This document shows positions 1,409 to 28,859 of a stretch of 41,302 nucleotides of DNA, piece after piece. Below the pieces are notes generated by a model. The model was not told where the DNA came from and ran no database searches. It was given only the letters and a program-made list of their open reading frames with translations. Numbering within the stretch: the stretch's first letter is position 1; the number at the start of each line of letters is the position of its first letter. The position numbers and the translations under genes are program-made. The stretch comes from Paludibacteraceae bacterium (GTDB lineage: Bacteria > Bacteroidota > Bacteroidia > Bacteroidales > Paludibacteraceae). The stretch covers positions 1 through 41,302 of the forward strand of contig JAFRNH010000002.1 in the NCBI GenBank assembly GCA_017430235.1. The letters run 5' to 3'.

Positions 1409-1478
1409 AAACTATTTGTTTTTTTATTCAATTAAATACGTCCAACTCTTAATTTGAACTTTCAAATCACAATTAGAA

Positions 1479-1486
1479 CAAAATTA
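1479..1486 (-). promoter_or_regulatory. Possible internal promoter -7 box
   Basis: On the minus strand this reads TAATTTTG, a match to the Bacteroidota TAnnTTTG box, about 70 nt before the ATG of the downstream GT4 gene in the largest gap of this part of the operon. No convincing TTG-type -33 element is seen at the right distance and the region is very AT-rich, so a chance match is quite possible. Confidence 0.22.
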
Positions 1487-1560
1487 CAAATAAAATCATC
1501 ACATAAAATTTCTGAATTTATTTTTCTTATTTCATTCAACGAATTTCAAGATCATCCTAC

Positions 1561-2637: not shown

Positions 2638-3857
2638 AAATCATCAGCTTTTTCTATGTTTGTCACCGAACATTTTAATACATATAACAACAGACATATA
2701 GGTATCCATTTATGAAAAGTATATGGATTACCTGAATTTAAGCAACTTACAATATTTCTTAAAGATAAGACAGAAACAAAAAACACAATGACTTCTTGTT
2801 TATTACTAATATTAGATTTGAAAATATATTTTAAAGGGAAATAAATAACATAAAAAGTAAAGAAACACAAACCGACAATCCCCATATCTCTAAATGACTG
2901 TAAAATTGGCTGATCTATTTGCTGCATATTACCATTGCCTATAATATAATTTAACACAGTAAAATTCTTGATCTCTTCCAATGCTTTTTGTCGATATTTA
3001 TACCTCTCAAAAGCAGAACCTGTCATATCCGTATGTGTTCCATATATCATATCATTTAAACCATACAACACATTATCTATTCTATCTGTATATAAATGAC
3101 TATAATTAGACAAAAAGACAAAAATTGAGACTACTATAAATATCAATACAATCCATTTTTTATACTTATCATTAATACTAGTCTCTCTTTGCATATATTT
3201 ATACACTACTATAAGAAAAGCAATAATAGCAACGACCAATGCTGTTCTTTTGGTAGAAATTAACAATATATACATATCAAACAACGCAGAAAAAATCATT
3301 AACAAGAAGACATGTATATTTTTTCTTGCATTATTACCCACAACCACAACACAACATACAATAAAATTATTTAAAACAATATCCGTGGTAACCATTTCAT
3401 CAAGAATTCTATCACTATCGTTTGTTATTAATCCGTTTTGAAACGAATAAAAGGCAATCAATGATCCGATGATAGTGATAACATAACTATAAATAATAAG
3501 ATGTTTATAATCTATTTCAACAGTAATAAGCAATAAGGTAAAAGCTAATGATGCAACAAACAAATTAAACATATAATTCAAATTAGCAAAACTAAATTCA
3601 CTCATATATATGTAGAGAGAGATTATAAGTTGTAATGCGATTATACGTTTTAAGTGTTTACAATAATTCTGATTAACCGGCAAGCCATTCCGTGAAATAT
3701 TTAACATTAACAGTATCAAACAAATAACAAACACGATATTAGACCAACCACTATTTGAAACAAAATAGTTAAGGAACATACCTATTGTCGAGCCTCCAGC
3801 TATTAACAAAGAAATAGCTAAATAAAAAAACTCTTTTCTCAACGATATTCGACTCAT
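2634..3857 (-). CDS. Wzy-like O-antigen/capsule polymerase, multipass membrane protein
   Basis: A 407-aa, very hydrophobic protein with roughly ten predicted membrane helices starting near residue 12. A larger hydrophilic loop lies at about residues 255-310 (the NYSHLYTDRIDNVLYGLNDM area and onwards). This layout, and its place between glycosyltransferases in a locus with a flippase, fit Wzy or O-antigen-ligase-like polymerases that join lipid-linked repeat units in the periplasm. Such proteins diverge greatly in sequence, so the call rests on topology and context. Confirmation would need a Wzy_C or O-antigen polymerase profile hit. The stop codon overlaps the start of the next GT4 gene by 4 nt. 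It is among the most AT-rich genes in the window. Confidence 0.75.
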   Translation of the reverse strand: MSRISLRKEFFYLAISLLIAGGSTIGMFLNYFVSNSGWSNIVFVICLILLMLNISRNGLPVNQNYCKHLKRIIALQLIISLYIYMSEFSFANLNYMFNLFVASLAFTLLLITVEIDYKHLIIYSYVITIIGSLIAFYSFQNGLITNDSDRILDEMVTTDIVLNNFIVCCVVVVGNNARKNIHVFLLMIFSALFDMYILLISTKRTALVVAIIAFLIVVYKYMQRETSINDKYKKWIVLIFIVVSIFVFLSNYSHLYTDRIDNVLYGLNDMIYGTHTDMTGSAFERYKYRQKALEEIKNFTVLNYIIGNGNMQQIDQPILQSFRDMGIVGLCFFTFYVIYFPLKYIFKSNISNKQEVIVFFVSVLSLRNIVSCLNSGNPYTFHKWIPICLLLYVLKCSVTNIEKADDL

Positions 3858-3968
3858 ACTTTTTCTATTATAACTTTCTTATATGATCCAACAGTATATC
3901 AACCATCTAGTTATATTATATACTCACCATTCAATTTTTTTGCCAAAACATCTGTGTTCATCCCATAT

Positions 3969-5153
3969 TTAGATTTTTTCTAATTCACATAAAACATCAT
4001 AATGTCGCTGACAATTACATTTGTCTCTAATATGGAAAAATGAATCTGCTCTTTTTTTATAAATATCATTCATCGTCCAATTATTACCGACAATTTGTTT
4101 CATTTCTTGAACTAAAAAATTCTCGTTTTTGACAATAGGGCCAAACCCATCTGACGAATAATTAAAATAACCTTCCTTATAATGATTTCTCCTATATAGA
4201 TCATAATCAAATTGGAAATATATGATTGGTTTATATTGATAAGCAAAATCAAAATATATACTACTAAAATCTGTTATGAGTGCACTACATTCGCAAATTA
4301 GTTTTTGTAAATCACACGTATCATTGTTATATATTTTAATTCTTTTATTTGCAAAACCATCAAATAGCGTTTTCCATGTTTTTATATGAGGATGTAAAAA
4401 ATATATTAGTTCTATATCATTTTCTTCAAGGAAACTATACAATTCTACAGATGTAAGAAACGAAGATATTGACCTAAAATAAAGGGTTGATTTAATATCA
4501 TTATTATTTTCTAAATACATTCTCCATGTTGGCATATATAGAATTTTTTTTGTCGTTGCACAATTAATTAAATGATCGTATCTACATAATCCTAAATATT
4601 TAACTTCGTTGTTCTTATATCCATAATTTTCCGAAATATATTTCCACTCAGGATATGCACCACACACAAAAACATCTGCATTTAATTTTGTTTTTATTCC
4701 TTGAGTCATATAATCTTTTATAATACCATGCTGAAGAAAAACTCTTTTACTTTGAGGGGGAAACACGTTGCGCATAAGCAAATAACAATATGAATTAGGG
4801 CAACATATACCCCATCCCGTGTCACAACAAATACTTGCATGGAAATAATAAAACCAATGTTTTATTGAACCATATTCAACAGTTTCGCACAAATCTTTTA
4901 CTCTAGAATAATCGTGTGAATTCTGTTTAATTGCATATATAATCCGAATCTCAGGATGATTTTTGCTAATCCATTTACACAGATAATATCCATTATCCCT
5001 AGCTTCTGTTGGTCTTTCTGTGATTAACCAACATTGTTCTTTATGGCAAAAGAATTTTACATACAAATTTATTGGTATGTATTTAAAAGTCAAATCTATA
5101 ATTGTTTCAACAAAGGATAATGAAAATATCATTTTGAATTTATTTCCCACCAT
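3969..5153 (-). CDS. CDP-glycerol:glycerophosphotransferase family protein
   Basis: A 394-aa protein matching the TagB/TagF-like family, which transfers glycerol-phosphate or ribitol-phosphate from CDP-activated donors. The visible signature is the C-terminal donor domain: FLQHGIIKDY at about residue 140, LYMPTWRMYL near 207, IYFLHPHIK near 250, and ITDFSSIYFDFAYQYKPII near 293. Two conserved histidines (in QHG and HPH) are thought to be catalytic in the family. No CDP-glycerol synthesis gene is in the window, so the donor is unknown; it would have to come from elsewhere on the chromosome or beyond the left edge. The gene starts 9 nt after the GT2 stop and is followed by a 111-nt gap before wzy. 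The product may decorate the glycan with an alditol phosphate. Confidence 0.85.
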   Translation of the reverse strand: MVGNKFKMIFSLSFVETIIDLTFKYIPINLYVKFFCHKEQCWLITERPTEARDNGYYLCKWISKNHPEIRIIYAIKQNSHDYSRVKDLCETVEYGSIKHWFYYFHASICCDTGWGICCPNSYCYLLMRNVFPPQSKRVFLQHGIIKDYMTQGIKTKLNADVFVCGAYPEWKYISENYGYKNNEVKYLGLCRYDHLINCATTKKILYMPTWRMYLENNNDIKSTLYFRSISSFLTSVELYSFLEENDIELIYFLHPHIKTWKTLFDGFANKRIKIYNNDTCDLQKLICECSALITDFSSIYFDFAYQYKPIIYFQFDYDLYRRNHYKEGYFNYSSDGFGPIVKNENFLVQEMKQIVGNNWTMNDIYKKRADSFFHIRDKCNCQRHYDVLCELEKI

Positions 5154-5162
5154 TATTCAAAG

Positions 5163-6116
5163 TCATTTTTGCACATTCAATATGGAATGTTTCACATTAT
5201 ACAAAAATCTCATTATAGAATATAATCCGATTGAAGACGGCATTACAAGCATATAACCCCTTAAATCATCTAAGGGATTTATGTGTTTAAGAAGAGGGAA
5301 ACAATGCATGGCAAATTGAAACGAAGAATCTTTATTTCTCCAGAAATTTCTCAGAGCTATACGCATAGAAAACACTCTTTTAAATACTTTCTCAGCAGGC
5401 AATCCTTTTAGTGATTTTACAAACATGTCAAACATTAATTTGTCTTTTTCAAATGAACCATTTATAGCAGAAGACAAACTGTTGGGGTTTTCGTTCTTAA
5501 TATAATGATAAAATGCTTTATTACAATACGTTACTTTAATTTTATTTTTCAAAAAAGAAGCAATAACATATAAGTCTTCACAGAAGGAAATTTCCGTAGG
5601 AAATATAACTTTGTATTCTGAATAGAGTTCTCTCTTTATTAGTTTATTCCAACAACAACCATTTAATTTACTAAATAGTTCACAAAGTACTTGTTGATTA
5701 TCCTCGGATGTCGGACATTGAGTCTTATATTTAACATGTCCGCATTGATGCAGGAAATAGTCACAAAATACAATATCTGCATTAGATTCTATTGCTTTTA
5801 AGTATAATTCCTTAAGCATATTAGATTCAATCCAATCGTCAGAATCCACATGAATTGTATATTCACCTTTTGCATTTACTATGCCTAGGTTTCTTGCACT
5901 ACTAACTCCTTCATTTTTTTTATGAAATACACGAATTCGATTATCGTTTCTAGCATATTCATCGCAGATATCACCACTTTTATCTGGGCTCCCATCATCT
6001 ATTAATAGCACTTCAAAATCAGTAAAAGTCTGAGATAATATGCTATTAATACAACGTTTAATATATGCTTCCGCTTTGTAGACAGGAACAATTATAGATA
6101 TCTTTGGACTATTCAT
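5163..6116 (-). CDS. Glycosyltransferase family 2
   Basis: A 317-aa GT-A fold enzyme. The N-terminus has the standard ISIIVPVYKAEAYIKRCINS start, LLIDDGSPDKSG at about residues 37-48, EGVSSARNLGI near 70, and the metal-binding DSDDW near 92, equivalent to the DXD motif. The C-terminal third has basic, aromatic segments but no clear membrane helix. It should use a UDP- or GDP-sugar with inversion, building the repeat unit on the lipid carrier. Its start overlaps the end of the pyruvyl transferase gene by 8 nt, so the two are probably made together. Sugar and linkage are not predictable. Confidence 0.92.
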   Translation of the reverse strand: MNSPKISIIVPVYKAEAYIKRCINSILSQTFTDFEVLLIDDGSPDKSGDICDEYARNDNRIRVFHKKNEGVSSARNLGIVNAKGEYTIHVDSDDWIESNMLKELYLKAIESNADIVFCDYFLHQCGHVKYKTQCPTSEDNQQVLCELFSKLNGCCWNKLIKRELYSEYKVIFPTEISFCEDLYVIASFLKNKIKVTYCNKAFYHYIKNENPNSLSSAINGSFEKDKLMFDMFVKSLKGLPAEKVFKRVFSMRIALRNFWRNKDSSFQFAMHCFPLLKHINPLDDLRGYMLVMPSSIGLYSIMRFLYNVKHSILNVQK

Positions 6117-7236
6117 TCAATGCATTTCTTAAAAAATTCATAGATTGAAGTTGAAGTTTTTCTATGACAATATCTGTGTCATCATAAGAAATCTCTTTTG
6201 TTTTTTCATTATAGTCTAAACTGCTGTATAAAAGCCTAGATTCTTGGCCTACCATCTTTAATAAAGATTCAAATCTTGAAAGACCTCTACTCTTATTTCC
6301 CAACACAAGAAATGGTTTGTGAAAAATCAAAGAGAAAACACAAGCATGGAAACTATCTGTTACGACAAACTCAGCATCCATAAATCCACGAATCCATGTT
6401 TCAACAGAAGGTTTTATCTTTTTTTCGATAGGAAGATTATCTCCCTGTATAGAATTAACATAAAATGGCTCAAGATTTCTTTCTTCTGCTATTTTGCTAA
6501 CAAGTGAATCAAATTCGTTCGATTTATCTAAACAATAAACCAAAAGAGAACCTGTGCTATGTGGTGTATCTGATTTAACAAGACATTCATAATCTTTTTT
6601 CCCCAATAATAATGTGGGATCACACAGTTGTATTGCATGCACTCCAAAATATTCATTACATAAAGAAATCCCCGATTCTTCCCTAACTGATATTGCATCA
6701 AACTTACGAATCAATTCTTTGCATTGTTTTGTCTTTTTAGAAGAGTATTCCCACGAATCCGTTCCAAAAGAAGGCGCATATGCAATTCTCTTTACATTCC
6801 ACCCATCTGTGAAATTCAAGAATGCATTCGATATGCCCTCTTTAAATTGTTTCTCAAAATATCGGGGTCTCCATACTTGATCACTACCGACAATAAAAGC
6901 ATCATAATCAGAAGACAAAATATCCGAAAACTTGTCTATTAGATGTATGTTTAGATATTCTTCACAAAAGCGAAAAGTATGTTGGAATATTATTGGATTA
7001 ATACGATTTCGATATCTCTCCGTAAAAACACGAATATTACGATTCTTAAAAATTTTTTTAATAAGTCTAACTCCAAGCCTTGGAATCAAGCCCAAATATA
7101 TTTCTTTTTCTTTATGCTTCTTGGCTATGATATGAACCTCATGTCCGCAACGGTTTAGTACTTCCTGCAGTGCATAAGATTGAAGTATTCCTCCGTAATT
7201 TTGACCCGGATTAAGCGAAAGTATTCCTATCTTCAT
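6109..7236 (-). CDS. Polysaccharide pyruvyl transferase family protein
   Basis: A 375-aa protein with the CsaB-like pattern: MKIGILSLNPGQNYGGILQSYAL at the N-terminus, DAFIVGSDQVWRP at about residues 108-120, and FVVTDSFHACVFSLIFHKPF near 290. Family members transfer pyruvate from phosphoenolpyruvate to form a ketal on a sugar, which gives the glycan negative charge. Many Bacteroidales members stand next to an F420-hydrogenase-beta-like gene, as here, and their real chemistry is not settled. The ATG shares 4 nt with the stop of that upstream gene. Pyruvylation is therefore the family-based guess, not a demonstrated role. Confidence 0.87.
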   Translation of the reverse strand: MKIGILSLNPGQNYGGILQSYALQEVLNRCGHEVHIIAKKHKEKEIYLGLIPRLGVRLIKKIFKNRNIRVFTERYRNRINPIIFQHTFRFCEEYLNIHLIDKFSDILSSDYDAFIVGSDQVWRPRYFEKQFKEGISNAFLNFTDGWNVKRIAYAPSFGTDSWEYSSKKTKQCKELIRKFDAISVREESGISLCNEYFGVHAIQLCDPTLLLGKKDYECLVKSDTPHSTGSLLVYCLDKSNEFDSLVSKIAEERNLEPFYVNSIQGDNLPIEKKIKPSVETWIRGFMDAEFVVTDSFHACVFSLIFHKPFLVLGNKSRGLSRFESLLKMVGQESRLLYSSLDYNEKTKEISYDDTDIVIEKLQLQSMNFLRNALNE

Positions 7237-8360: not shown

Positions 8361-9583
8361 TTACCCTTAAGACGTTTTACGATTTTCTCTCCGAGTACTT
8401 TTTTCGCAATTCGTTTAGCCAAAGTAACTGATTTACTTGGGGAAAGATACAGCCATGCTATAAACAATGAGGGAACGTTTTTTTTGTTTTTGCGGGCAAA
8501 ATCTACGTTATCCTTTGCAAAAGGGTCTATATTGTACATCAACCTTTGACGACACTTGTATTTGAAACTATGTTTTTTATAAACATCAATATCGAAAACT
8601 TCTGCAAAATCTGTAAGTTTATCCATGCTTTCTAATGCCATAAGTGTACGCATACACTTCGGACAACAACTACAATTTTTAGCGGTTGTATATCCGTTAT
8701 CGCCTTTCACACAAACATTTAGAAACTTTTGTGCCGGTGCATAATCTGATATTTGTACAGTTTTTTCTGTTCTCAAATATTGTTCTCCATCAGGGATAAT
8801 ATCCAAATTGTCTGTGGATAATAATGGTAATATATAAGGATCAGAAAATGCCGCTATATCAAAATTTTTATAATTGTTTGCATTTTCAAAATAGGAAATT
8901 CCTGATGACAAATAGTACTTGAAACATATTTTCTGAATGCTTAAAATCCCAGAAACAAGCGTGATAGTATCAGTCTTTTCATGTCCAAATTTTTCATGAA
9001 AAGCATGAACATTAGAATCTATCGGAATGAACGGAATATTTAAACTATCAGGGAAAACCTTACAGTATTCATATCGGTTCTTGAATTTTATGATAGTGTC
9101 GGGATTGTCAAATCTGCCATGACTTCCCACATTAAAGAAAAATAATGTATTTATCTTGTAATCAACATCTTTCTCATTAGCATAGTATTCAACAAAAGTA
9201 GAAAATGAATCTACTCCCGCTGAAAAACCAGTTCCTATGCGAGTGCCCGTTTTCGTTACTATCCCATAGTTCTCGATTTTGATGTCTACATCTGATAGTT
9301 CACAAGAAAATGCAAGTAAAACTTTGTTAACGTAGGTGGTGATGTTTTTAAATAGCTTTTTTGAAACAGCTCCACGTATGACGATATTTTCTTTGTAATA
9401 CATTGCAGGATAAAGTATTGCAACAAGAAATGCATCATACACTTCATCGGTAAAAACATCACCGAACGACAACGGGGCTGAAAACCACATTGTTTTTTCT
9501 GAAAAAGAATCACTTTTGCAATCACAAATAAGTTTTGAATCAGTATCAGTTTTTTCGATTCGGATATTCGAGAGTTCTATCAT
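8357..9583 (-). CDS. PP-loop ATPase-like protein with QueC-like cysteine motif, function unknown
   Basis: A 408-aa protein without a signal peptide. At residues 119-126 it has GFSAGVDS, a match to the SGGxDS pyrophosphate-binding loop of N-type ATP pyrophosphatases (QueC, NAD synthetase, argininosuccinate synthase, TilS). At residues 291-310 it has C291 plus C304, C306, C307 and C310, resembling the zinc site in the C-terminal part of QueC. The N-terminal ~110 residues look like an extra domain and the C-terminal 60 are strongly basic. PP-loop enzymes adenylate an acid or amide before amination or thiolation, so it may form an amide or thio group on a glycan building block; that is inference. 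It overlaps its neighbours wzx and the iron-sulfur gene by 4 nt each. It is not a normal queC because of its length and extra domains. Confidence 0.7.
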   Translation of the reverse strand: MIELSNIRIEKTDTDSKLICDCKSDSFSEKTMWFSAPLSFGDVFTDEVYDAFLVAILYPAMYYKENIVIRGAVSKKLFKNITTYVNKVLLAFSCELSDVDIKIENYGIVTKTGTRIGTGFSAGVDSFSTFVEYYANEKDVDYKINTLFFFNVGSHGRFDNPDTIIKFKNRYEYCKVFPDSLNIPFIPIDSNVHAFHEKFGHEKTDTITLVSGILSIQKICFKYYLSSGISYFENANNYKNFDIAAFSDPYILPLLSTDNLDIIPDGEQYLRTEKTVQISDYAPAQKFLNVCVKGDNGYTTAKNCSCCPKCMRTLMALESMDKLTDFAEVFDIDVYKKHSFKYKCRQRLMYNIDPFAKDNVDFARKNKKNVPSLFIAWLYLSPSKSVTLAKRIAKKVLGEKIVKRLKGK

Positions 9584-11112
9584 TTTGAACTATTATTAGA
9601 TGGTTTTATTTTTTTTCTAACAATATTAATAATACTTTGTCTTTCCATGCGTGTAAGACCTAAAAAATAAATAATAAATGCCGCAAAAAAGACTTTTATG
9701 GATATGTCTAAAATGAATGTTGCCATTGTTTCTTTTGAAAGATTCAGATAATAATTTGCAACCACGAGAATTGCCGTTATCAAAATTACGCGTATAAAAA
9801 CAGCATTAAAAATAGCCTTTATACTAAATCCCTCCACACGTTTTAAAAAGCCTAAACGGACAAACACCAAACCTAACATCAAAATAATTCCAATTACATA
9901 AATTGTATACGGTTGGCAACCATACCTGAGTGCTAAATATGATAATGGTAAGTTTAGGATAACAACAACGCCGATAATTGCTTGATACAAAGCAATCTTA
10001 CCCGTTGCCTGATTTACGGTTGCCATAGGCAGAGATATTGATTCAACCAATGTTTCAATAAAAAGCAATCGCACAAAAACAACAGTATATTCGGGTACAT
10101 TTTTAAGCCATAAAGTCAAAATATAATCCAAATTGCTGAATAGAGGAAATACCGCAATCAATATAAGGAAATATGACGTTTTGCAGCCCCAAAAAACAAT
10201 TTTCCATAATTCATCATAGTTTTTTGCTGCATATTGTTTTACGATTTGAGGTTTTACCGCCTGCATGAAATTTCCAGAAAAAGAAGTTACCGCACTTCTA
10301 ATTTGATTTGCAATACCTTGTGCGGCATTTACAACAGTGCCAAAAAACAAATTTATAACGATTGACACTCCCTGGTTTTTTAGTACAGTTGAAGCGTGTC
10401 CAAACAAATTCCATCCGCTGTAACTGACTATTTCTTTAAAAAGAGCTTTATCCTTGACAAACTGAAATCTACATTCGACATAATGTTTTCTACAATAAAC
10501 TCTGTAGATAGCGGTGATTATGAAAGATACAGCCATTAACAGGAATCCATATAAAACAAGTTTGTCAAAAAGCAAAACTTGCAACAAAAAGACGATTGCG
10601 AATTTCAAAACGGCTTCCACAATGCTCACGTAAGCGTAAATGTTCATATTTTCGTGAGCGATAATGCTTGCCATATAGGGCGTTGTGATAAGTGTCAAAA
10701 GGAACGACACCACAGTTGCTTGATATATCCAAATCGCAGCAGACAATCTTTCTGGTGAAATGACGAGTTTGTTCATCACGAACCACAATCCAACGGTCTC
10801 AGCCAAGACGACAATCACTACCGCCAAAAGCACGTATATTTGGAACGTTACACTAAATGTGGTTTTTAAGTGTTCGTAATCTTGTTTCCCTAAATCAAAT
10901 GCGAAATATCTTTGGCTTGCAGTCGCCATTGCACCGGATAAAAAACCAAACATTGTAACAACACCAGCAACGACATTATATGTTCCGTAATCCTCCGCGC
11001 CCAAAACATTCAAGACAATGCGAACTGTGTACAAAGACACTAGCATTATCAGGATTTGACGGAAATAGAGTAGCAAGGTGTTTTTCGCTATACGCGAAGT
11101 AGATGAGGACAT
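9580..11112 (-). CDS. Wzx-type polysaccharide flippase (MOP superfamily)
   Basis: A 510-aa integral membrane protein with about 12-14 predicted helices. The N-terminus TLLLYFRQILIMLVSLYTVRIVLNVLGAEDYGTYNVVAG is the usual opening of Wzx/RfbX proteins (read here as a pattern over residues 13-50). The protein would flip undecaprenyl-linked repeat units to the periplasm for the Wzy polymerase encoded downstream. It is the first cassette gene after the inserted ATPase/RloB module; 399 nt of repeat-rich DNA separate it from rloB. A transcript reading through from gmd, or a promoter in the repeat region, would be needed to express it; none is obvious. The stop overlaps the start of the PP-loop gene by 4 nt. 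Confidence 0.92.
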   Translation of the reverse strand: MSSSTSRIAKNTLLLYFRQILIMLVSLYTVRIVLNVLGAEDYGTYNVVAGVVTMFGFLSGAMATASQRYFAFDLGKQDYEHLKTTFSVTFQIYVLLAVVIVVLAETVGLWFVMNKLVISPERLSAAIWIYQATVVSFLLTLITTPYMASIIAHENMNIYAYVSIVEAVLKFAIVFLLQVLLFDKLVLYGFLLMAVSFIITAIYRVYCRKHYVECRFQFVKDKALFKEIVSYSGWNLFGHASTVLKNQGVSIVINLFFGTVVNAAQGIANQIRSAVTSFSGNFMQAVKPQIVKQYAAKNYDELWKIVFWGCKTSYFLILIAVFPLFSNLDYILTLWLKNVPEYTVVFVRLLFIETLVESISLPMATVNQATGKIALYQAIIGVVVILNLPLSYLALRYGCQPYTIYVIGIILMLGLVFVRLGFLKRVEGFSIKAIFNAVFIRVILITAILVVANYYLNLSKETMATFILDISIKVFFAAFIIYFLGLTRMERQSIINIVRKKIKPSNNSSK

Positions 11113-11511
11113 CTGGTTTTTGATTTAATTATTATTGTTTCGCCCCTACAGGGCTTCGGTCACGCTCGTCATTCTACCAGGGGTTCACGCCCCTGTCTAT
11201 GATATGGCGCCCTTACAGGGTTTTCAATAAGGTTTTAGGGTTATATATGTCTTTCAACTGTGGCATGCACCATCACGTTGCGGAACATTGTCACGGCTCA
11301 TGTGGATGCGCGAATGACGGTATGGAGGCCACATCACCATGGGCGAATTGCCATTCGCCCCTACGTACGGGCGAATAGCAATTCGCCCCCTTCTGCGCAT
11401 CATACGTTAGGGTGCCATTCCAATACGTACGGGCGAATTACACCCATGGGAACCCACGGCGGTGCTATAGGCTATATTTGTTTGGGGCTTTTCAGTCCAG
11501 CTGAAGTATGA
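11113..11511. repeat. Repeat island A, between wzx and the RloB-like gene
   Basis: This 399-nt gap has no credible gene. It holds GC-rich repeats in an otherwise AT-rich neighbourhood. From the left: a GCCC-ctaca-GGGC palindrome near 11142-11154; a CAGGGG-ttcacg-CCCCTG hairpin at 11178-11195; two complete REP-like hairpins at 11341-11360 and 11369-11388; a half copy at 11431-11438; and at 11448-11490 the left copy of the 43-nt repeat that also occurs on the far side of the ATPase gene. The small plus-strand frame covering 11260-11511 is made of repeat DNA and is not a gene. Confidence 0.85.
11448..11490 (+). repeat. 43-nt direct repeat, left copy
   Basis: It begins GGGAACCCACGGCGGTGCT and ends TGTTTGGGGCTT in the R copy or the same with one change in this one. 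The match to 13623-13665 is 39 of 43 positions in the same orientation; the differences are ATA versus TCT in the middle and one T/C. The two copies bracket the RloB and ATPase genes. Confidence 0.85.
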
Positions 11512-12174
11512 TCATGATTTTCGTTTCACATCAATATTTAGACCTTCAAACAATTTATACATCTCTGACACGCTTTCTTGTTGGCATGTCTCGATGTCAA
11601 AGGATTTTAATCGTCTGAAATCAATCTTTTGCATGTATGGCAACAACCTTTCAAAAAGATCTGGCTTGCCTAAATAATTCTGTTTGCTTTTGTTATACTT
11701 TTCAAACAAACCTCCTCCAACATCAAATTTACGTAAGACTGGAAGCAACTCGGTTTCATATTGTGCAAAATATCTATTCGACTCTGGCTGCTGATGCAAA
11801 TAGAACCAATATTCAAGACATGGATTGTTGACAATCACAGTCAGTTTGTCTTTCCACCGATTATCGGTTATCGCTTTATGATAGAACTGTTTGAACTTTT
11901 GCAAAACACTGTTCTTTACCTTTGCTTCTTTGTTCTCCTTCTGAATGCTATCAAAATCTATTATCCAGAAGATATGTTCATATCCTTTTGCTATCGCTTC
12001 TTTTACCAATTCGAATTGTTTGCTTATCGAATGACATGACAATTCTGGTTGAAACCTGATTTTTAAATCATAATGCTTCTTCAACAGTTCAACATACCAT
12101 TGTTCCGTTTCGCCATCAGCAATCAAGACATAACCACCTGCTTGTAGTTCTTTTTTTATTTTTCTACGAGCCAT
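11512..12174 (-). CDS. RloB-like protein (TOPRIM-type nuclease candidate), AbiLii-like
   Basis: A 220-aa protein of the RloB family, originally named for genes linked to type I restriction loci. The start has a hydrophobic strand followed by ADGETEQWYVELL at residues 19-31, whose glutamates match the TOPRIM-like acidic strand, and FWIIDFDS at residues 69-76 supplies the D-x-D pair. Such folds are metal-dependent nuclease or primase-type centres. Its ATG overlaps the stop of the upstream ATPase gene by one base (TAATG), so the two are co-translated. An ATPase plus RloB pair is the layout of the AbiL abortive-infection system (AbiLi and AbiLii) of lactococci and of many RloAB pairs. Defence is inferred from that family link; no activity is shown. 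A polysaccharide role is unlikely. Confidence 0.85.
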   Translation of the reverse strand: MARRKIKKELQAGGYVLIADGETEQWYVELLKKHYDLKIRFQPELSCHSISKQFELVKEAIAKGYEHIFWIIDFDSIQKENKEAKVKNSVLQKFKQFYHKAITDNRWKDKLTVIVNNPCLEYWFYLHQQPESNRYFAQYETELLPVLRKFDVGGGLFEKYNKSKQNYLGKPDLFERLLPYMQKIDFRRLKSFDIETCQQESVSEMYKLFEGLNIDVKRKS

Positions 12175-13508
12175 TATCCTTCCACGTAAAATAACAAATC
12201 ATTGGAATTTTTTGGTACTCCACCCAACTTGCCAACGCTATAAGCATTATAAATACTTGTTGTGTCTCTGATCACAGAACTATCAAAATCCGCAAAAGAG
12301 TACATTTCGGTAGATCCATCATTTCGCTTATTCGCTATCCACAATGCATCTTTGCGAAGTAAATGTTTTTTTTGCAAAAATTCTCGATTGTGAGTTGTAA
12401 ACAGCAATTGTGACCTTTTGACATTCTTTAGGAATGATACGATAAACGCTTCATATAATTCAGGATGCAATGACATATCTAGCTCGTCGATCATCATGAA
12501 CAATCCCTCAGAATCGGACAAATGCAATAGTATTCCCATTAATCCGAAATAACGCATCGTACCCTCTGATTCAAGTCTATCCGGCAAAACGAACTCTGCT
12601 TGGTCCGTTTTATGTTTAATCATTATTTTAGGAATGTCGCCGTCACTTACTACATCCTCCCCATCAACATTTATTGTCCACTCACGCTCCTCAACGTATG
12701 AATTCAATATTCCTTGTAGAAAATCATTGACTGAGCCCTTTTCTTCAATCGAGATGTCAGAGATGTTGAAGTCCGCTCTTTTCAAAGCATTCACCATTGC
12801 TTGGGTCTTAATCGATTTATTATCAATATAATCCGCCGCAATCATATACAAAGGAGTTTGTGGCGGAAGTAACATATCCAATTTATAACCAAACCAATCG
12901 CAAGAGTTTCTTAACGCAGGTATGTCCGCACTGATTTTCGAAAAACCAGCAAGCACTGTCTCGTTCGACAATGTAAGAATGCTTAATTGTTTCTGTATCA
13001 AAGGATCAACCTTTTGTTCTTTATCGAATACAATGTTCGGAATACGTTTTTCCTTATCCGTTGTGCGTTTATACACATTTTTACTTTTTTTTGCCGTCAG
13101 ATATGGATATTCGTTCAGTTCTTCGTATACAATCGCATTAGCGTTGAACTCCAACTTATAATTGTATTTGGTCTGTTCCGAAATAAAGTTCATTTCCATT
13201 GCCGCCTTTCCTGTATAATCCATTCCGAACGGAATAAATTTCAATGGAATATTCTTTTCAGTTTGTATCTTCAAGGCAATGAATTTCATATGATTCAAAG
13301 CTTTCAGAAGATTTGATTTTCCCGAAGCATTTGCCCCATATATCATTCCTATTTTCAACAAGTTCAGTGGTTTCTTTTTAGGATTCTTGTCAGGAACAGA
13401 AATGAAATAATAATCTTCCAAACCTTTAACTTTCGTATCGGGTTCAAACGATAGAGTCTGTCGATCTCTAAAAGAGAGGAAATTTTCAACTGTAAAATCT
13501 ACCAGCAT
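12174..13508 (-). CDS. AAA/ABC-type ATPase, RloA/AbiLi-like
   Basis: A 444-aa ATPase of the AAA_15/AAA_21 type, related to SMC/OLD-like heads. It starts with DFTVENFLSFRDRQTLSF, typical of this family. Walker A is GANASGKS at residues 58-65; an ABC-like signature region lies at LESEGTMRYFGL near 312-323; Walker B is FMMIDELDMSLHP at 337-349; the H-loop is TTHN at 371-374. It would sense a trigger and control the RloB partner, which follows with a one-base overlap. A TATTTTTG box lies about 27 nt before the ATG. The pair is set between gmd and wzx with repeat islands on both sides, which suggests it came in as a unit. Family assignment is firm; the anti-phage role is inferred from AbiL and other ATPase-TOPRIM systems. 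Confidence 0.88.
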   Translation of the reverse strand: MLVDFTVENFLSFRDRQTLSFEPDTKVKGLEDYYFISVPDKNPKKKPLNLLKIGMIYGANASGKSNLLKALNHMKFIALKIQTEKNIPLKFIPFGMDYTGKAAMEMNFISEQTKYNYKLEFNANAIVYEELNEYPYLTAKKSKNVYKRTTDKEKRIPNIVFDKEQKVDPLIQKQLSILTLSNETVLAGFSKISADIPALRNSCDWFGYKLDMLLPPQTPLYMIAADYIDNKSIKTQAMVNALKRADFNISDISIEEKGSVNDFLQGILNSYVEEREWTINVDGEDVVSDGDIPKIMIKHKTDQAEFVLPDRLESEGTMRYFGLMGILLHLSDSEGLFMMIDELDMSLHPELYEAFIVSFLKNVKRSQLLFTTHNREFLQKKHLLRKDALWIANKRNDGSTEMYSFADFDSSVIRDTTSIYNAYSVGKLGGVPKNSNDLLFYVEG

Positions 13509-13534
13509 AGAATACTATTTTTGTATGCGAATTG

Positions 13535-13542
13535 CAAAAATA
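13535..13542 (-). promoter_or_regulatory. Promoter -7 box of the ATPase/RloB pair
   Basis: On the minus strand this reads TATTTTTG, a full TAnnTTTG match, 26 nt before the ATG at 13508. It lies inside the bracketing 43-nt repeats, so the module carries its own start site. The -33 element is weak. Confidence 0.5.
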
Positions 13543-13578
13543 GCAATTTCTACAATTCTAAACCACTAAAAATATACG

Positions 13579-13844
13579 TTAATTTGTAAACAACTTACAT
13601 TTTACATAGATTTTGCATCCACGGGAACCCACGGCGGTGCTTCTGGCTATATCTGTTTGGGGCTTCATAACGGACGCGGCACGCCACGTCCCTGGGGCGA
13701 ATGGCAATGGGGCGAATGGCAATTCGCCCCTACGGGCATTTTCCCCCGAATATGGCGCATATTGTATGGGCGAATGGCAATTCGCCCCTACGGGCATTTT
13801 CCCCAAATATGGCGCATGTTGTACGGGCGAATGGCATTCGCCCA
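13579..13844. repeat. Repeat island B, between the ATPase gene and gmd
   Basis: The 336-nt gap between the two genes holds the ATPase promoter at its left end and then repeat DNA. This includes the right copy of the 43-nt repeat, a GGACG/CGTCC hairpin near 13673-13691, a half REP copy at 13694-13708 and complete REP hairpins at 13709-13730, 13768-13788 and 13825-13843. The first two REP copies are each followed by CTACGGGCATTTTCCCC and a TATGGCGCAT stretch, giving a tandem unit of about 58 nt. The last hairpin ends one base before the gmd stop codon. Open frames here on both strands are translations of the repeats, not genes. Confidence 0.85.
13623..13665 (+). repeat. 43-nt direct repeat, right copy
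   Basis: Same orientation as the copy at 11448-11490, 39 of 43 identical, offset by 2175 bp. Together they frame the two-gene ATPase/RloB module and its promoter box. Confidence 0.85.
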
Positions 13845-14981
13845 TTATAACACCACCCCTTTTTCCAAATATTCCGCCAAATTCGTACGAACCGTAGAGG
13901 CTACACTATCGGCTGCCACTTTCTGCATATCATACTTCACCATGATCTCTACCAACTGGTCGAACGTGGTGGTCTGTGGATTCCATCCTAACTTGGTCTT
14001 CGCCTTCGTTGGGTCTCCCCATAGGTTCACCACATCCGTTGGTCGATAGAAGTCTTCCGATACTTCAATCAACACCTTGCCGACCAACGTCTCCGATGGC
14101 TTCACACCTACAATAGGGTGATGAACCGATACACAAACGCCCTTCTCATACAATCCCTCTCCTTCAAACTTCAACTCTATGCCGGCTGCTTTGAAGGCTT
14201 GATAGGCAAACTCTCGTACGGAGTGCTGAACACCCGTCGCTATCACAAAATCCTCGGGTTTCTCCTGCTGCAAAATCAACCACATGCACTCTACATAATC
14301 CTTGGCATAGCCCCAATCTCGCAACGAGGACATATTACCCAAGAAGAGTTTCTCTTGCTTGCCCTGCGCTATACGTGCTGCCGCCAAGGTAATCTTGCGT
14401 GTCACAAAGGTCTCGCCTCGTCGCTCACTCTCATGATTGAACAGAATACCTGAACAACAATACATATTGTACGCCTCACGATACTCCTTCACAATCCAAT
14501 AGCCATACAGCTTCGCCACCGCATAGGGAGAATAGGGGTGGAATGGCGTGTTCTCATTCTGTGGCACCTCCTCCACCTTACCATACAACTCCGACGTGGA
14601 GGCTTGATAGATGCGACAGGTATGCTCCAAACCACAGGCCCTGACTGCCTCCAACACCCTCAAGACACCCACGGCATCTACATCGGCTGTGAACTCAGGC
14701 GAGTCGAACGATACCTGCACGTGACTCTGCGCAGCTAAGTTATATATCTCTGTGGGCTTTACCTTCCCCACCAATTTTACCATCGACATCGAATCGGTCA
14801 TGTCTGCATAATGCAGGTGGAAACAAGGCGTTCCCTCCAAATGAGCGATCCTCTCTCTGTAATCAACAGAACTACGGCGAATCACACCGTGTACTTCATA
14901 CCCTTTTGCTAACAAGAACTCTGACAGGAAACTGCCGTCCTGACCGGTTACCCCAGTGATGAGTGCAATGTCTTTTGACAT
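13845..14981 (-). CDS. gmd: GDP-mannose 4,6-dehydratase
   Basis: A 378-aa extended short-chain dehydrogenase. The NADP-binding loop is [16 protein letters not shown] at residues 9-24, followed by VIRRSS; the catalytic Y-x-x-x-K is in [12 protein letters not shown] near 149-160; [18 protein letters not shown] near 178-195 is specific to Gmd. It converts GDP-D-mannose to GDP-4-keto-6-deoxy-D-mannose, the branch point to GDP-L-fucose, and its partner GDP-L-fucose synthase is encoded about 2 kb upstream. Length and motifs are normal. It follows the PHP phosphatase gene by 53 nt, with a small stem-loop between them. Base composition is nearer to the housekeeping genes than to the AT-rich cassette, so it probably belongs to the more conserved, upstream part of the operon. 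Confidence 0.96.
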
Positions 14982-15034: not shown

Positions 15035-15727
15035 TTATTTCAGAATCAAATTCAACCGCTTCGAAATCTTTGCATTCGGCATCAGCATGCGAGGTGAATG
15101 GATATCACTTCCATGCATATCATAAAAGCCCATCTTCAGCATCCACTCCGCCTTCTTACGTGCCGTCTTGCCATACACATCCACCAGCGAACCGAGGTTC
15201 AACTGGAAACGGATACCTTTGTTTTTCAGCTCTTTATAATCTTTCTCGTCCATATAGGTGTAGCGCTCCGGATGTGCCAACACCGGGAAGTAGCCCTTGC
15301 TCTGTATCTCCTCCAGCAACTTCTCAAAGTCACTAGGCGGATTGAAATAGGAGGTCTCGACCAACAACTGATCGCCCGCCTCACCCAAAGGCAGTAAATC
15401 ATTCGTCTCCAAACGGGTGACGAAAAGCGTATCCATCATATACTCAGCCGCCAAGTGAAGACATACGGAACCTTGATATGCCGCCTGCAACTCGTCGAAC
15501 CGACGTCGTAAATCTTCAGTTGTGTTGGGCATATCCTCCATGATATGAGGGGTGCACCATAAATCGCTGACCCCCATCTGCTCAAACGAGCTAAGTATAG
15601 ACAAAGAGACCTTCAGCTCCCTCACACCGTCATCCACACCCGGCAATATATGCGAGTGATAATCGGTGCTTCCCTCCAATAAAAGGGGACTCCACAAAGG
15701 AACTTTTTTAAAAATGTCTAAAAACAT
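15035..15727 (-). CDS. PHP-type protein-tyrosine phosphatase, CpsB/CapC/YwqE family
   Basis: A 230-aa metal-dependent phosphatase. DYHSHILPGVDDGV near residues 19-32 holds the HxH metal ligands; WCTPHIMEDMP and LAHPERYTYM give further metal ligands; GSDIH is near the end. In Gram-positive capsule loci this family dephosphorylates the tyrosine kinase that controls chain length; in Bacteroidales loci the partner is a Wzc-like kinase, which is not in this window. I start at MFLDIFKK (15727): the frame extends upstream to an ATG at 15751, but those eight residues (MAIRPNNN) are encoded mostly by a REP-like repeat and are unlikely to be native. It lies between upxY and gmd. Confidence 0.88.
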   Translation of the reverse strand: MFLDIFKKVPLWSPLLLEGSTDYHSHILPGVDDGVRELKVSLSILSSFEQMGVSDLWCTPHIMEDMPNTTEDLRRRFDELQAAYQGSVCLHLAAEYMMDTLFVTRLETNDLLPLGEAGDQLLVETSYFNPPSDFEKLLEEIQSKGYFPVLAHPERYTYMDEKDYKELKNKGIRFQLNLGSLVDVYGKTARKKAEWMLKMGFYDMHGSDIHSPRMLMPNAKISKRLNLILK

Positions 15728-15731
15728 ATTG

Positions 15732-15920
15732 TTGTTGGGGCGAATTGCCATTCGCCCATGGTGAATTAACCACCGGCGTTTGTTGGGGGCGAATGCAATT
15801 CGCCCCTACACGTCCTCGGTGAACCTACCTTCAACGTTTGTTTGTTGGGGCGAATTGCTATTCGCCCATGGTAAATTAACCACCGATGTTTGTTGGGGGC
15901 GAATGCAATTCGCCCCTACA
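15732..15920. repeat. Repeat island C: 79-nt unit duplicated with 110-nt period
   Basis: Two units at about 15732-15810 and 15842-15920 differ at only three positions. Each carries two REP-like hairpins: 15737-15757 and 15786-15806 in the first, 15847-15867 and 15896-15916 in the second. The upxY stop codon (TAG, complement of 15916-15918) is formed from repeat bases, and the other end meets the 5' side of the phosphatase gene. The whole gap between these two operon genes therefore consists of repeat DNA. Confidence 0.88.
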
Positions 15921-16440
15921 GGCGTTCCAAAAACGCTTGTGGGATGTAGGAGGTGACCACCACCGCCACACCCTCGATGGCGACAATCAATCGCTTGCGT
16001 CCTTTTATGCGACGCACATATCCTTCGGCGCCTTTAAACATTCCATCGATCACTCGAACACGATCGCCAATGCGATAGTCGAAAGAGGGATCGAGCAACT
16101 CAAGTCCTTTATCTTTGGCTGATGTCACCAACATAAAGGCGTTCATCTCATGTTCAGGAATCGGTTGTGGTTGTTTTGTCTCTATATGTGAATAAACTTG
16201 AAATTTATCACCAAAGGTGGACTTCAATGTGCTAAAATAGGAAACAGCACATCGTATAAAAATCAAAGAAGGAATAAGTGGACGTTCAGTATAGGTGGGA
16301 AGACCCTCCTTGGTCGTCTCCGCCACGTGCATGGGGATATAATATTGTATGTTGTCGTTCACCAAAAAAGGAATCATTGCAGGTACTCTATCATAAAAGA
16401 CCTTCACAGCGTACCAAAACTCTTTATTTACATCAATCAT
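15916..16440 (-). CDS. UpxY-family transcription antiterminator (NusG paralog)
   Basis: A 174-aa NusG-like protein. The N-terminal NGN-type domain starts with EFWYAVKVFYDRVPAMIPFL and includes RPLIPSLIFIRC near residues 52-63; the C-terminal KOW-type domain has YRIGDRVRVIDGMFKGAEGYV near 122-142. In Bacteroides, each capsule locus begins with its own UpxY, which binds elongating RNA polymerase in the leader and lets it read through the long operon. This gene is in that first position and has a leader of about 295 nt. The paired UpxZ gene that usually follows, which silences other loci, is absent; repeats and the phosphatase gene follow instead. A REP-like repeat supplies the stop codon. Confidence 0.93.
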   Translation of the reverse strand: MIDVNKEFWYAVKVFYDRVPAMIPFLVNDNIQYYIPMHVAETTKEGLPTYTERPLIPSLIFIRCAVSYFSTLKSTFGDKFQVYSHIETKQPQPIPEHEMNAFMLVTSAKDKGLELLDPSFDYRIGDRVRVIDGMFKGAEGYVRRIKGRKRLIVAIEGVAVVVTSYIPQAFLERL

Positions 16441-17861: not shown

Positions 17862-17908
17862 TTTATCTATTCTTTTTTTCGTTTTCTTATCATTTAATCA
17901 AAGCACAA

Positions 17909-18046
17909 CTATGGCTGTGGTTTATCACCATTGTTCTTCAGTTTGGCACGCAGCTGACGAATCTCACGGATGCGTTTCTGCGCCTCCCACTTCTTTTTCT
18001 TCGCTTCATACGTCTCCTGACGTCTTTCCAAATAGTTGTCTGCCAT
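17909..18046 (-). CDS. Small basic helical protein, unknown function
   Basis: A 45-aa protein starting MADNYLERRQETYEAKKKKW and continuing with alternating Arg/Lys and Glu, predicted fully helical with a proline-rich tail. The ATG at 18046 is chosen because it lies 7 nt after the stop of the Smr-domain gene; the longer frame upstream overlaps that gene and has no better start. The position and coding character (highly charged, with no odd codons) support a real gene. I do not recognise a defined family. High charge suggests nucleic-acid or ribosome contact, which is only a guess. It probably shares a transcript with the Smr gene and perhaps fcl. Confidence 0.65.
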   Translation of the reverse strand: MADNYLERRQETYEAKKKKWEAQKRIREIRQLRAKLKNNGDKPQP

Positions 18047-18053
18047 AGCTATC

Positions 18054-19138: not shown

Positions 19139-19345
19139 TCAAAAAATACGGGCAGATGGTCGCAAATCCAAGCATTTTTGCATAATCAGCAATGGGGCGA
19201 ATGACCGCAAATCCAAGCATTTTTGCATAATCAGCAATGGGGCGAATGGCCGCAAATCCAAGCATTTTTGCATAATCAACAATGGGGCGAATGGCAATTC
19301 GCCCCTACCGTACGGGCGAATTGCTATTCGCCCTTCTTCAAACAA
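19139..19345. repeat. Repeat island D: three 45-nt tandem units plus two REP-like hairpins
   Basis: Most of the 344-nt gap between the divergent Smr and queA genes. Units at 19161-19205, 19206-19250 and 19251-19295 are nearly identical; each begins CGCAAATCCAAGCATTTTTG and ends with the first half of a REP copy. The last unit runs into a complete hairpin at 19284-19305, and another follows at 19314-19333. A minus-strand open frame across the island is periodic and made of repeat translation; it is not a gene. Confidence 0.9.
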
Positions 19346-28377: not shown

Positions 28378-28397
28378 CTATAGATTATAGAGAAGTA

Positions 28398-28859
28398 TCA
28401 TTCTTCCTTATACGGATGCAACTTAGCATATTCGTAGTCTTCTTCGGTGATGACGTAACGGCATACATATACGTCAGGCGCTTTTTCCTCCTTTGTATAA
28501 CATTGAGGACGATCTATCATGCAAAGATGTTCCAAATTAGGCTTGCACAAACAAGTTATTGTATCTTCAAACACAAGGAAAACACGTCCATACCAAAAGG
28601 GTTCAATTTCACCTGCGATACCATTAGTTTCCCCTATTCGGACAATACTATCCGATGGATAAAGCGTGAAAATTTCCATACTCGGATCATCTTCACCTTT
28701 CAAAATATGATGATACACAATGTCTACCTTCTTCGAAGTGCCATTTGTAATAACAAATGTGTAGTCTCCAACTGTCACCTTATCGACGTCTTCTTCTCCA
28801 CAGGAAAATAGCAAGAGAGAGAAAAAACATGTAATAAAACAAAATTTTAATTTATCCAT
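28398..28859 (-). CDS. Small lipoprotein, intact paralog of the fragment at 30723-30998
   Basis: A 153-aa protein with a lipoprotein signal ending LLFSC (Cys20), followed by GEEDVDK, acidic enough to suggest surface export. The rest is beta-rich with several cysteines (LCKPNLEHLC, PQCYTK) and ends RYVITEEDYEYAKLHPYKEE. That ending is shared with a truncated copy 2.3 kb away, with 63 of 64 nt identical at the 3' end. The first 13 nt overlap the end of the zincin-motif lipoprotein gene, so the two are probably one operon. The function is unknown; pairing with the putative protease suggests a partner or inhibitor, but nothing in the sequence proves that. Confidence 0.75.
   Translation of the reverse strand: MDKLKFCFITCFFSLLLFSCGEEDVDKVTVGDYTFVITNGTSKKVDIVYHHILKGEDDPSMEIFTLYPSDSIVRIGETNGIAGEIEPFWYGRVFLVFEDTITCLCKPNLEHLCMIDRPQCYTKEEKAPDVYVCRYVITEEDYEYAKLHPYKEE

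What the first reader, a model, noticed from the sequence alone, without database searches (positions are those of the whole stretch)
11448..13665. AbiL/RloAB-like defence pair set inside a capsule operon between 43-nt direct repeats
The ATPase and RloB genes have no place in glycan synthesis, carry their own promoter box, overlap as TAATG, and sit between gmd and wzx. Direct repeats at 11448-11490 and 13623-13665 (39/43 identical, same orientation) bracket the unit. That looks like a cassette gained or lost by recombination between intergenic repeats, without any transposase or integrase. Capsule loci as landing sites for defence genes would link two phage-resistance layers (receptor masking and abortive infection), and repeat-mediated excision could switch the unit off.
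Basis: partly seen in the sequence, partly recalled or inferred. Interest (0 to 1): 0.72.

Follow-up and report, generated by a model that had tools for sequence, protein, structure and literature searches.

The report
Swappable defence slot in capsule operons
A small probable phage-defence gene pair sits inside a bacterium's capsule operon at a spot where related species carry other defence-like genes or none, usually with short palindromic repeats at the seams, so capsule and defence genes appear to be exchanged at one place.

Summary
In detail: an AbiL-type pair (PADLOC AbiLi 2.7e-73, AbiLii 4.4e-13) lies between gmd and wzx of a capsule operon, with 39/43 direct repeats on both sides. The interpretation needs correcting. 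The 43-nt repeats are copies of a genus-wide dispersed two-hairpin element (525 copies in 15 of 16 genomes), hardly closer to each other (33/37) than to copies in relatives (up to 32/37). Cassette exchange itself is supported. In G003, whose gmd is 98% identical, the slot holds a Schlafen-AlbA_2 gene, and homology stops at REP palindromes on both sides. Two congeners carry AbiL at different places of a shared locus; a third shares one flank without it. AbiLi identities conflict with those of queA. Eight of 10 readable slots hold defence-like genes (5 of 10 by strict labels), always co-oriented; 0 of 73 other capsule proteins scanned match PADLOC at 1e-7. REPs lie in 9 of the 10 slots, but one slot has none, and REPs also occur elsewhere without such cargo. 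Excision as an off-switch is unsupported. Best reading: a defence slot in capsule operons, mostly REP-seamed; new in combination, made of known parts. Phage defence and recombination were not tested; no structure was obtained.

The parts
12174..13508 (-). AbiLi / RloA-like ABC-type ATPase (444 aa), probable sensor/regulator subunit
   Evidence: PADLOC AbiLi 2.7e-73; Pfam AAA_21 2.4e-27, AAA_15 1.5e-10; GANASGK P-loop and IDE invariant in 8 of 8 aligned homologues
11512..12174 (-). AbiLii / RloB protein (220 aa), probable TOPRIM-like effector
   Evidence: PADLOC AbiLii 4.4e-13; Pfam RloB 5.6e-16; D73, E121, W123, H127 invariant and E20, G21, E24 at 90% or more in 24 homologues
13535..13542 (-). 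TATTTTTG (TAnnTTTG, the Bacteroidota -7 box, recalled), 26 nt before the AbiLi ATG
   Evidence: box present in 5 of 5 close AbiLi copies, window included
11438..11490 (+). left direct repeat (R1 element; the model match runs 11451-11501)
   Evidence: R1 model E=1e-10
13613..13665 (+). right direct repeat (R1 element, second hairpin lost; model match 13626-13668)
   Evidence: R1 model E=2.5e-4; 18/19 match at the equivalent place in G003
11341..11438 (.). left REP array GGGCGAATNGCNATTCGCCC; homology with G003 stops at 11438, half-way through a palindrome
13694..13843 (.). right REP array; homology with G003 resumes at 13821, at a REP-like half next to gmd
13845..14981 (-). gmd, conserved right flank of the slot
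   Evidence: TIGR01472 8.1e-151; 98% identical in G003
9580..11112 (-). wzx flippase, left flank of the slot
   Evidence: Pfam Polysacc_synt 9.5e-13
15035..15751 (-). CpsB/CapC-like capsule protein
   Evidence: Pfam 3.8e-33
15916..16440 (-). NusG-like (UpxY-type) antiterminator near the head of the operon
   Evidence: Pfam NusG 1.8e-8; the name UpxY is recalled

Best explanation
The feature is an AbiL abortive-infection pair occupying an exchangeable accessory slot inside a capsule operon. In 9 of 10 slots examined in the genus the slot carries dispersed palindromic repeats; in the window these are a REP, with a likely RAYT gene elsewhere in the genome, and the genus-specific two-hairpin element R1, of which the 43-nt repeats are copies. 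Shown by comparison: different cargo, or none, occupies equivalent slots in related species; the seams in the one closely matching pair lie at REP palindromes; the cargo does not follow the relationship of the species. Inferred: incoming DNA recombines at repeats or short homologies in these spacers (ordinary homologous recombination, or RAYT-assisted single-strand joining), swapping small cassettes without breaking the operon, because the cargo is co-oriented and has its own promoter. Also inferred, from family knowledge: AbiLi is an ATPase that senses infection and controls RloB, a TOPRIM-like nuclease or toxin that stops the infected cell.
For: G003 shares fcl, NusG-like, CpsB and gmd (99.7, 93, 90, 98% aa) and has a SLFN_AlbA_2 gene plus a broken AlbA_2/Fic-like remnant in the gmd-wzx slot; homology ends at window 11438 inside a REP palindrome and resumes at 13821 at a REP-like half. 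G009 and G011 AbiL blocks are 93.5% identical over 2620 bp including REP flanks, against 86% over 6271 bp of the adjacent locus, and lie on opposite sides of a homologous glycosyltransferase pair. G006 shares the right flank of G009 (94.4% over 5375 bp) with REPs and no AbiL. AbiLi is 82 and 80% identical to two genomes of genus g4 but 67% to congeners, whereas queA is 66% and 80%. In a second EPS locus of the same genome REPs bracket PDC-S27 (1.9e-191) and a PDC-M64-like pair; G003 has an AlbA_2 gene there. 8 of 10 slots hold defence-like cargo, 8 of 8 co-oriented, against 0 of 73 non-slot capsule proteins with a PADLOC match at 1e-7. In the EPS-locus stretches of seven species (about 42-66 kb each) all 27 sites of the other REP (GACGCA..TGCGTC) lie in the slot, in six species. 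8 of 21 GGGCGAAT REPs of the own genome lie in this window, 0.32 expected by length. Direct repeats bracket cargo in four slots: window, G003 (106 nt, 103/106), G011 (about 127 nt) and G010 (136/149 columns, a copy of the flippase start).
Against: Three of the 8 cargo-bearing slots were found through AbiL and two through the REP search. Without the AbiL-found ones it is 5 of 7; if SLFN_AlbA_2 and the P-loop-only QatA match are not counted it is 5 of 10, or 2 of 7. PDC families are candidates by name. G010's slot has no copy of either REP. REPs also fill window spacers without cargo (15738-15932, 19285-19333), 12 of 37 sites in G003 lie outside its two capsule loci, and none of the 8 in G014 is in a capsule locus seen here; of the nine non-capsule, non-RAYT stretches fetched for REP sites, seven show no defence-like gene by eye. 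Breakpoints are resolved in one close pair. The glycosyltransferase pair of G009/G011 is only 68 and 56% identical. Slots of G001, G010 and G011 carry PDDEXK_2 genes, a family named 'nuclease family transposase', so the exchange may not be enzyme-free. All comparisons are between species, partly between metagenome bins. No phage or recombination test; no structure.
Confidence: 0.66

Rival explanations
1. Passive REPs: capsule loci recombine often through conserved flanking genes, wide spacers tolerate both cargo and REP copies, and the repeats play no part in the exchange.
For: REPs also occupy cargo-free spacers in the window; G010's slot holds cargo without either REP; G004 has REPs but no defence cargo; 12 of 37 REPs in G003 lie outside its two capsule loci; no experiment links REPs to crossover.
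Against: Both seams against G003 fall at REP sequences; the exchanged G009/G011 block ends in REP arrays; 27 of 27 sites of the other REP in the fetched EPS loci lie in the slot.
Confidence: 0.38
2. One reading: the two 43-nt repeats are the ends of a discrete AbiL cassette that is excised or inserted by recombination between them, switching defence off.
For: In this genome the only two copies at 3 mismatches or fewer bracket AbiL; RecA-independent loss between short direct repeats is reported in E. coli (PMC5426353, abstract).
Against: The repeats are dispersed elements and no closer to each other (33/37) than about the best copies in relatives (32/37); an R1 match lies at the gmd-side place in G003 with other cargo; no single-repeat empty allele was found.
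Confidence: 0.08
3. The pair belongs functionally to the capsule operon (for instance control of surface glycan synthesis) rather than to phage defence.
For: Of the 5 copies at 67% identity or more, window included, 3 are in capsule or EPS loci, co-oriented.
Against: The other two (G018, G371) share a non-capsule place; other slots hold unrelated defence-like families; relatives occur on viral contigs (73 loci) and plasmids (166 records).
Confidence: 0.07

Closest known systems
AbiL of Lactococcus lactis (AbiLi/AbiLii)
   Same: Two-gene operon of an AAA/ABC ATPase and an RloB-type protein; both genes match the PADLOC models. PMC10440598 (passages) calls AbiLii a TOPRIM_OLD toxic effector of a plasmid-encoded system.
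   Different: Divergent, and in a capsule operon. In PMC3985639 (passages) L. lactis AbiLii was not toxic in E. coli; F. nucleatum AbiLii was, but its AbiLi did not counteract it, so a simple toxin-antitoxin model may not hold.
PARIS (AriA/AriB)
   Same: ATPase paired with a small Toprim nuclease; the window ATPase matches an AriA model at 4.7e-30. AriB cleaves tRNA (PMC12409363, abstract).
   Different: The partner is RloB; no AriB match was listed.
REP sequences beside E. coli O157 antigen clusters (PMC3158064, passages)
   Same: Intergenic REPs near a surface-polysaccharide cluster coincide with some junctions of sequence similarity; the authors only speculate that REPs drive exchange.
   Different: There REPs lie in regions flanking the cluster; here they bracket defence-like cargo inside the operon, in Bacteroidales.
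RAYT/REPtron systems, TnpAREP subclass 2.4 (PMC6006769, passages and one section)
   Same: A Y1_Tnp gene with NHFH, WQ and YIDNNP motifs with REPs on both sides, some copies with GTAG or CTAC feet.
   Different: Association with defence cargo is not mentioned in the parts read.
Defence islands and hotspots (E. coli, P. aeruginosa)
   Same: Conserved flanks with exchangeable defence cargo (general idea; P. aeruginosa paper PMC10250203 seen in a listing only).
   Different: Position inside a capsule operon; no integrase recognised in the window slot. The words capsule, capsular, O-antigen and polysaccharide do not occur in the E. coli island paper (PMC10121019).

Membership tests
AbiL abortive infection system | AbiLi ATPase profile | tested here: met
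   PDLC02335 2.7e-73, 244.9 bits
AbiL abortive infection system | AbiLii/RloB partner profile | tested here: met
   PDLC02337 4.4e-13; PF13707 59.7 bits over a 31.5 cut-off
AbiL abortive infection system | two-gene overlapping operon | tested here: met
   one-base overlap at 12174; pair also adjacent in L071-L079 (9 of 9 loci)
AbiL abortive infection system | TOPRIM-type fold of the effector | tested here: inconclusive
   acidic residues conserved; HHpred relation to OLD_TOPRIM reported by others (PMC10440598, passages); no meaningful PDB match by sequence; structure job never ran
AbiL abortive infection system | stops phage by killing or arresting the infected cell | not testable with these tools
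   needs plating assays
PARIS | AriB partner | tested here: not met
   the partner matches RloB only in Pfam and AbiLii only in PADLOC at 1e-3
Transposon or integrative island | transposase or integrase inside the unit | tested here: not met
   between the repeats the ORFs of 100 aa or more are the two genes and one antisense ORF of 109 aa at 12987, the last not taken as a gene
REP (repetitive extragenic palindrome) | short palindromes dispersed between genes | tested here: met
   21 sites in the own genome, present in 3 of 16 genus genomes, 0 for the reversed control pattern
REP (repetitive extragenic palindrome) | cognate RAYT gene flanked by REPs | tested here: met
   Y1_Tnp at G000:C36:362-628, just over the Pfam cut-off, REPs at 44, 72, 239, 267, 920, 1057 of that contig; a 79% homologue beside the EPS locus of G003
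REP (repetitive extragenic palindrome) | mobilised by the RAYT | not testable with these tools
   needs a cleavage or excision assay
Invertible (phase-variable) capsule promoter | inverted repeats around the operon promoter | tested here: inconclusive
   one 18-nt pair, 78% complementary, upstream of the NusG-like gene; none upstream of fcl (17862-18053); most other pairs in the five spacers are REP copies

The most novel reading that the evidence does not exclude
In this Bacteroidales genus, RAYT/REP repeats help make capsule operons into docking sites that need no integrase: small defence cassettes are joined at REP/R1 hairpins, so that surface antigen and intracellular immunity are exchanged and expressed as one co-transferred, co-transcribed phage-resistance package.
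Probability: 0.27. Interest if true: 0.82.

Novelty: new variant of a known kind. Interest (0 to 1): 0.62.

Why it matters
Capsule loci of Bacteroidales are highly variable between strains and capsule is an early barrier to phage (general knowledge). If a fixed position inside these operons also trades intracellular defence systems, one recombination event could change both layers. This gives a testable route by which defence genes may move without an integrase, a place to look for unknown defence families (slot genes), and a possible role for RAYT/REP elements.

Tried and rejected
Rejected: the 43-nt repeats as a private att-like pair. Rejected: PARIS (no AriB-type partner). No support found for a recent phage or plasmid source of this cassette: plasmids and phages hold only relatives under 60% identity (166 and 8 records), and the exact R1 pattern tried was absent from viral contigs. 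Led nowhere: the single genome-contig scan gave one locus, a Paludibacteraceae MAG; viral contigs gave 73 AbiLi-related loci at 22-37%, used only for the RloB alignment. Solved-structure searches gave nothing useful for RloB and two weak hits for AbiLi, one a retron PtuA. Rfam found one tRNA in the window. Literature: ten searches showed, in the rows listed, no paper on defence cassettes in REP-bounded slots of capsule operons; some searches matched far more papers than were listed (3,125) and the library lacks most subscription journals, so this is weak evidence of absence. In PMC3090145 (passages) phage insertions between the regulatory genes and the PS genes of a P. distasonis capsule locus are mentioned, a partial precedent for the position.

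The statement that all slots carry REPs was wrong for G010.

Not assessed: G001's slot (REPs and an Rpn-type PDDEXK_2 gene, then the contig ends); capsule loci of G002, G005, G007, G008, G012 (no comparable slot recognised in the stretches fetched), G013 and G014 (no CpsB match). G003's second slot is counted although the contig ends just beyond it. In the PADLOC control 73 full-length non-slot ORFs were scanned: 13 of the window, 42 of G010, 9 of G015, 9 of G004. Left out: end-truncated ORFs, a few small ORFs, a second PDDEXK_2 gene downstream in G004 (L178:13215-14234), and the upstream parts of the G015 and G004 loci.
Full report
What was checked. The window is contig C54 of a 2.71 Mb, 111-contig genome, 88% complete. 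The one named hit to its AbiLi is a Paludibacteraceae MAG from water-buffalo reticulum (80% identity), with the contig length of G018's contig, so the family is probably Paludibacteraceae (Bacteroidales). The operon reads fcl, a NusG-like gene, CpsB/CapC, gmd, the pair, wzx, then glycan genes, on the minus strand (the name fcl is recalled for an epimerase-family gene). The pair is AbiL-type: AbiLi 2.7e-73 and AbiLii 4.4e-13 in PADLOC, RloB 5.6e-16 in Pfam. The repeats are real: 39/43, extending to 46/53, none in 100 shuffles.

What the 43-nt repeats are. In the own genome only these two copies match at up to 3 mismatches, with degenerate copies on C4 and C81. In 358 genomes of the family the core pattern occurs in 11, all of the same genus. 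Eighteen copies from relatives, without the window copies, align as two hairpins; 92.8% of cells pair, against 89.9% in shuffles of the 3' letters and 22-58% when the partner is slid by 1-3 columns; only one pair shows changes on both sides. The resulting model R1 finds the window copies at 1e-10 and 2.5e-4 and 525 copies in 15 of 16 genus genomes at E of 0.01 or less, up to 84 in one, 6 in the own genome; 150 candidates per genome were scored, so counts may be low, and E-values are rough. Over 37 nt the two window copies agree at 33, and single copies in relatives agree with one of them at up to 32, so they are not a private pair. The right copy has lost its second hairpin and abuts another repeat.

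The second repeat. Outside the R1 copies on both sides lie palindromes GGGCGAATNGCNATTCGCCC. The own genome has 21 at up to one mismatch, on three contigs: 8 in this window, 7 around a Y1_Tnp gene on C36, 6 on C78. By length 0.32 would be expected in the window (binomial 5e-10; copies occur in pairs, so this overstates independence). Only 3 of 16 genus genomes have this palindrome: 25 of 37 sites in G003 lie in its two capsule loci and 12 elsewhere; the 8 sites of G014 are not in a capsule locus seen here. The C36 gene, just over its Pfam cut-off, carries NHFH, WQ and YIDNNP, the motifs listed for TnpAREP subclass 2.4 in PMC6006769 (passages), whose REPs can carry GT[AG]G and C[TC]AC feet (one section). 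G003 has a 79% homologue between REPs beside its second EPS locus.

Same slot, other cargo. G003, with queA 94% identical, has the orthologous locus: fcl 99.7%, NusG-like 93%, CpsB 90%, gmd 98%. Between gmd and the flippase region it carries, instead of AbiL, a SLFN_AlbA_2/HATPase_c_4 protein (PF04326 1.5e-21) and a broken AlbA_2/Fic-like piece, the latter between 106-nt direct repeats (103/106), followed by a remnant of the same wzx start. Homology with the window runs from 10964 to 11438, stopping inside the palindrome after GGGCGAAT, and resumes at 13821 at another REP-like half beside gmd. An 18/19 match to the right R1 copy lies at the equivalent place in G003 (score 31 against at most 22 in 300 shuffles; R1 model 0.0088), so that repeat probably belongs to the slot rather than to AbiL.

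Other loci of the genus. In an exopolysaccharide locus shared by several species, the place after a conserved pair of glycosyltransferases holds: AbiL in G009 (after two further glycosyltransferase genes); an Rpn-type PDDEXK_2 gene, AbiL and PDC-S73 (2.5e-131) in G011; Rpn and a KAP NTPase (QatA model 2.2e-17, P-loop part only) in G010; an OCD gene, SocA/Panacea and DUF3990 (PDC-M13B 1.2e-44) in G015; only an OCD gene in G004; no cargo in G006. G009 and G011 AbiL blocks are 93.5% identical over 2620 bp, REP arrays included, while the adjacent locus is 86%; the block lies after a second glycosyltransferase pair in G009 and before its homologue (68 and 56% aa) in G011, so each appears empty at the other's site. 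G006 matches G009 at 94.4% over 5375 bp on the right side, with REPs and without AbiL; its left neighbour differs, so it is a one-sided empty allele. In the fetched EPS-locus stretches of seven species (about 42-66 kb each) the palindrome GACGCA..TGCGTC occurs at 27 sites, all in the slot: G009 8, G011 6, G015 5, G001 4, G004 2, G006 2, and none anywhere in G010. In G010 the KAP gene is instead bracketed by direct copies of the start of the flippase gene (136 of 149 columns).

A second locus of the own genome. On C78, REPs bracket PDC-S27 (1.9e-191) and a pair matching PDC-M64 models beside Wza/Wzc genes; G003 has another SLFN_AlbA_2 gene in that place, the contig ending just beyond. In all, 8 of 10 slots hold defence-like genes: window, G003 (two), C78, G009, G010, G011, G015; not G004 and G006. 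Three were found through AbiL and two through REPs. Without the AbiL-found ones it is 5 of 7. If SLFN_AlbA_2 and the P-loop-only QatA match are not counted as defence, it is 5 of 10, or 2 of 7. In 8 of 8 the cargo is on the strand of the capsule operon. As a control, 0 of 73 non-slot capsule proteins from four loci match any PADLOC family at 1e-7.

Movement of AbiL. AbiLi of the window is 82% and 80% identical to G371 and G018 of another genus but 67% to congeners G009 and G011; queA shows the opposite, 66% for the first two and 80% for the last two. In G371 and G018 the pair lies at a shared non-capsule position, so the capsule association is frequent (3 of the 5 copies at 67% or more, window included) but not obligatory. 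Of 358 family genomes 11 have AbiLi at 1e-60 or better, the own genome included.

How it probably works. Shown: gene content, slot, repeats, alternative cargo, promoter-like box. Inferred from family knowledge: AbiLi is an ATPase sensor, RloB a TOPRIM-like effector. The RloB alignment keeps E20, G21, E24, D73, E121, W123 and H127. PMC10440598 (passages) relates RloB to OLD TOPRIM; in PMC3985639 (passages) L. lactis AbiLii was not toxic in E. coli, while an F. nucleatum AbiLii was, and its AbiLi did not neutralise it. Inferred: exchange by recombination at REP/R1 or other short homologies in the spacers. The precedent read is PMC3158064 (passages), where REPs coincide with some junctions beside O157 antigen clusters. 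PDDEXK_2 (Rpn-type) genes in three slots may also promote recombination (family role recalled). The off-switch idea has only a general precedent (PMC5426353, abstract) and no evidence here.

Verdict. AbiL and REPs are known; a mostly REP-seamed slot for defence cassettes inside capsule operons did not appear in the rows listed by my ten searches of an incomplete library. New variant of a known kind. The chief weaknesses are inter-species comparison, few resolved breakpoints, weak labels for some cargo, one slot without REPs, REPs elsewhere without cargo, and no functional test.

Noticed in passing
L257 (G000:C78) 3306-6312: A second EPS locus of the same genome holds PDC-S27 (1.9e-191) and a PDC-M64-like HTH pair between REP arrays; the G003 equivalent holds a SLFN_AlbA_2 gene.
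   Followed up: yes
L258 (G000:C36) 293-2748: The probable RAYT gene with REPs around it lies about 1.4 kb from a SocA/Panacea antitoxin gene; in G003 the corresponding region, with a 79% RAYT homologue, runs straight into the EPS locus.
   Followed up: partly
L182 1810-1953 and L175 4006-4154 (G010): The KAP NTPase gene is bracketed by direct copies of the start of a flippase gene and its upstream DNA (136 of 149 columns), with no REP there.
   Followed up: partly
L078 (G000:C92) 779-6561: A further RloAB-type pair sits beside an AAA_15/OLD-TOPRIM protein and a UvrD helicase, which resembles Gabija (name recalled; Pfam only).
   Followed up: no
L077 (G000:C76) 872-2761: A third RloAB-type pair (33% to the window AbiLi; AbiLii model 3.6e-21).
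   Followed up: no
L267 (G014:C103) 4054-7065: Three REPs lie about 1.1 kb from a gene pair of an AAA ATPase (PDC-M29A 1.1e-53) and a 190-aa partner without a match, outside any capsule locus seen.
   Followed up: no
window 28397-28469 and 30722-30794: 73-nt direct repeat, 95% identical, 2325 nt apart, around ORFs 28398-28859 and 28847-30508 (the latter without a Pfam match); perhaps a partial gene duplication.
   Followed up: no
window 19150-19293: Three tandem 45-nt units ending in REP halves, next to a REP pair upstream of queA.
   Followed up: no
L156 (G003) 12880-13056: Remnant of the 5' end of the window's wzx beside an unrelated glycan gene: the capsule side of the slot has recombined too.
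   Followed up: partly
L073 (G011) 9341-9467 and 11513-11642: About 127-nt direct repeat carrying a REP and part of the AbiL upstream region on both sides of AbiL; the second copy lies upstream of PDC-S73.
   Followed up: partly
L037 (G000:C4) 3040-3096 and 4556-4605: Two R1 copies in direct orientation bracket a single acyltransferase-like gene (gene name by eye).
   Followed up: no
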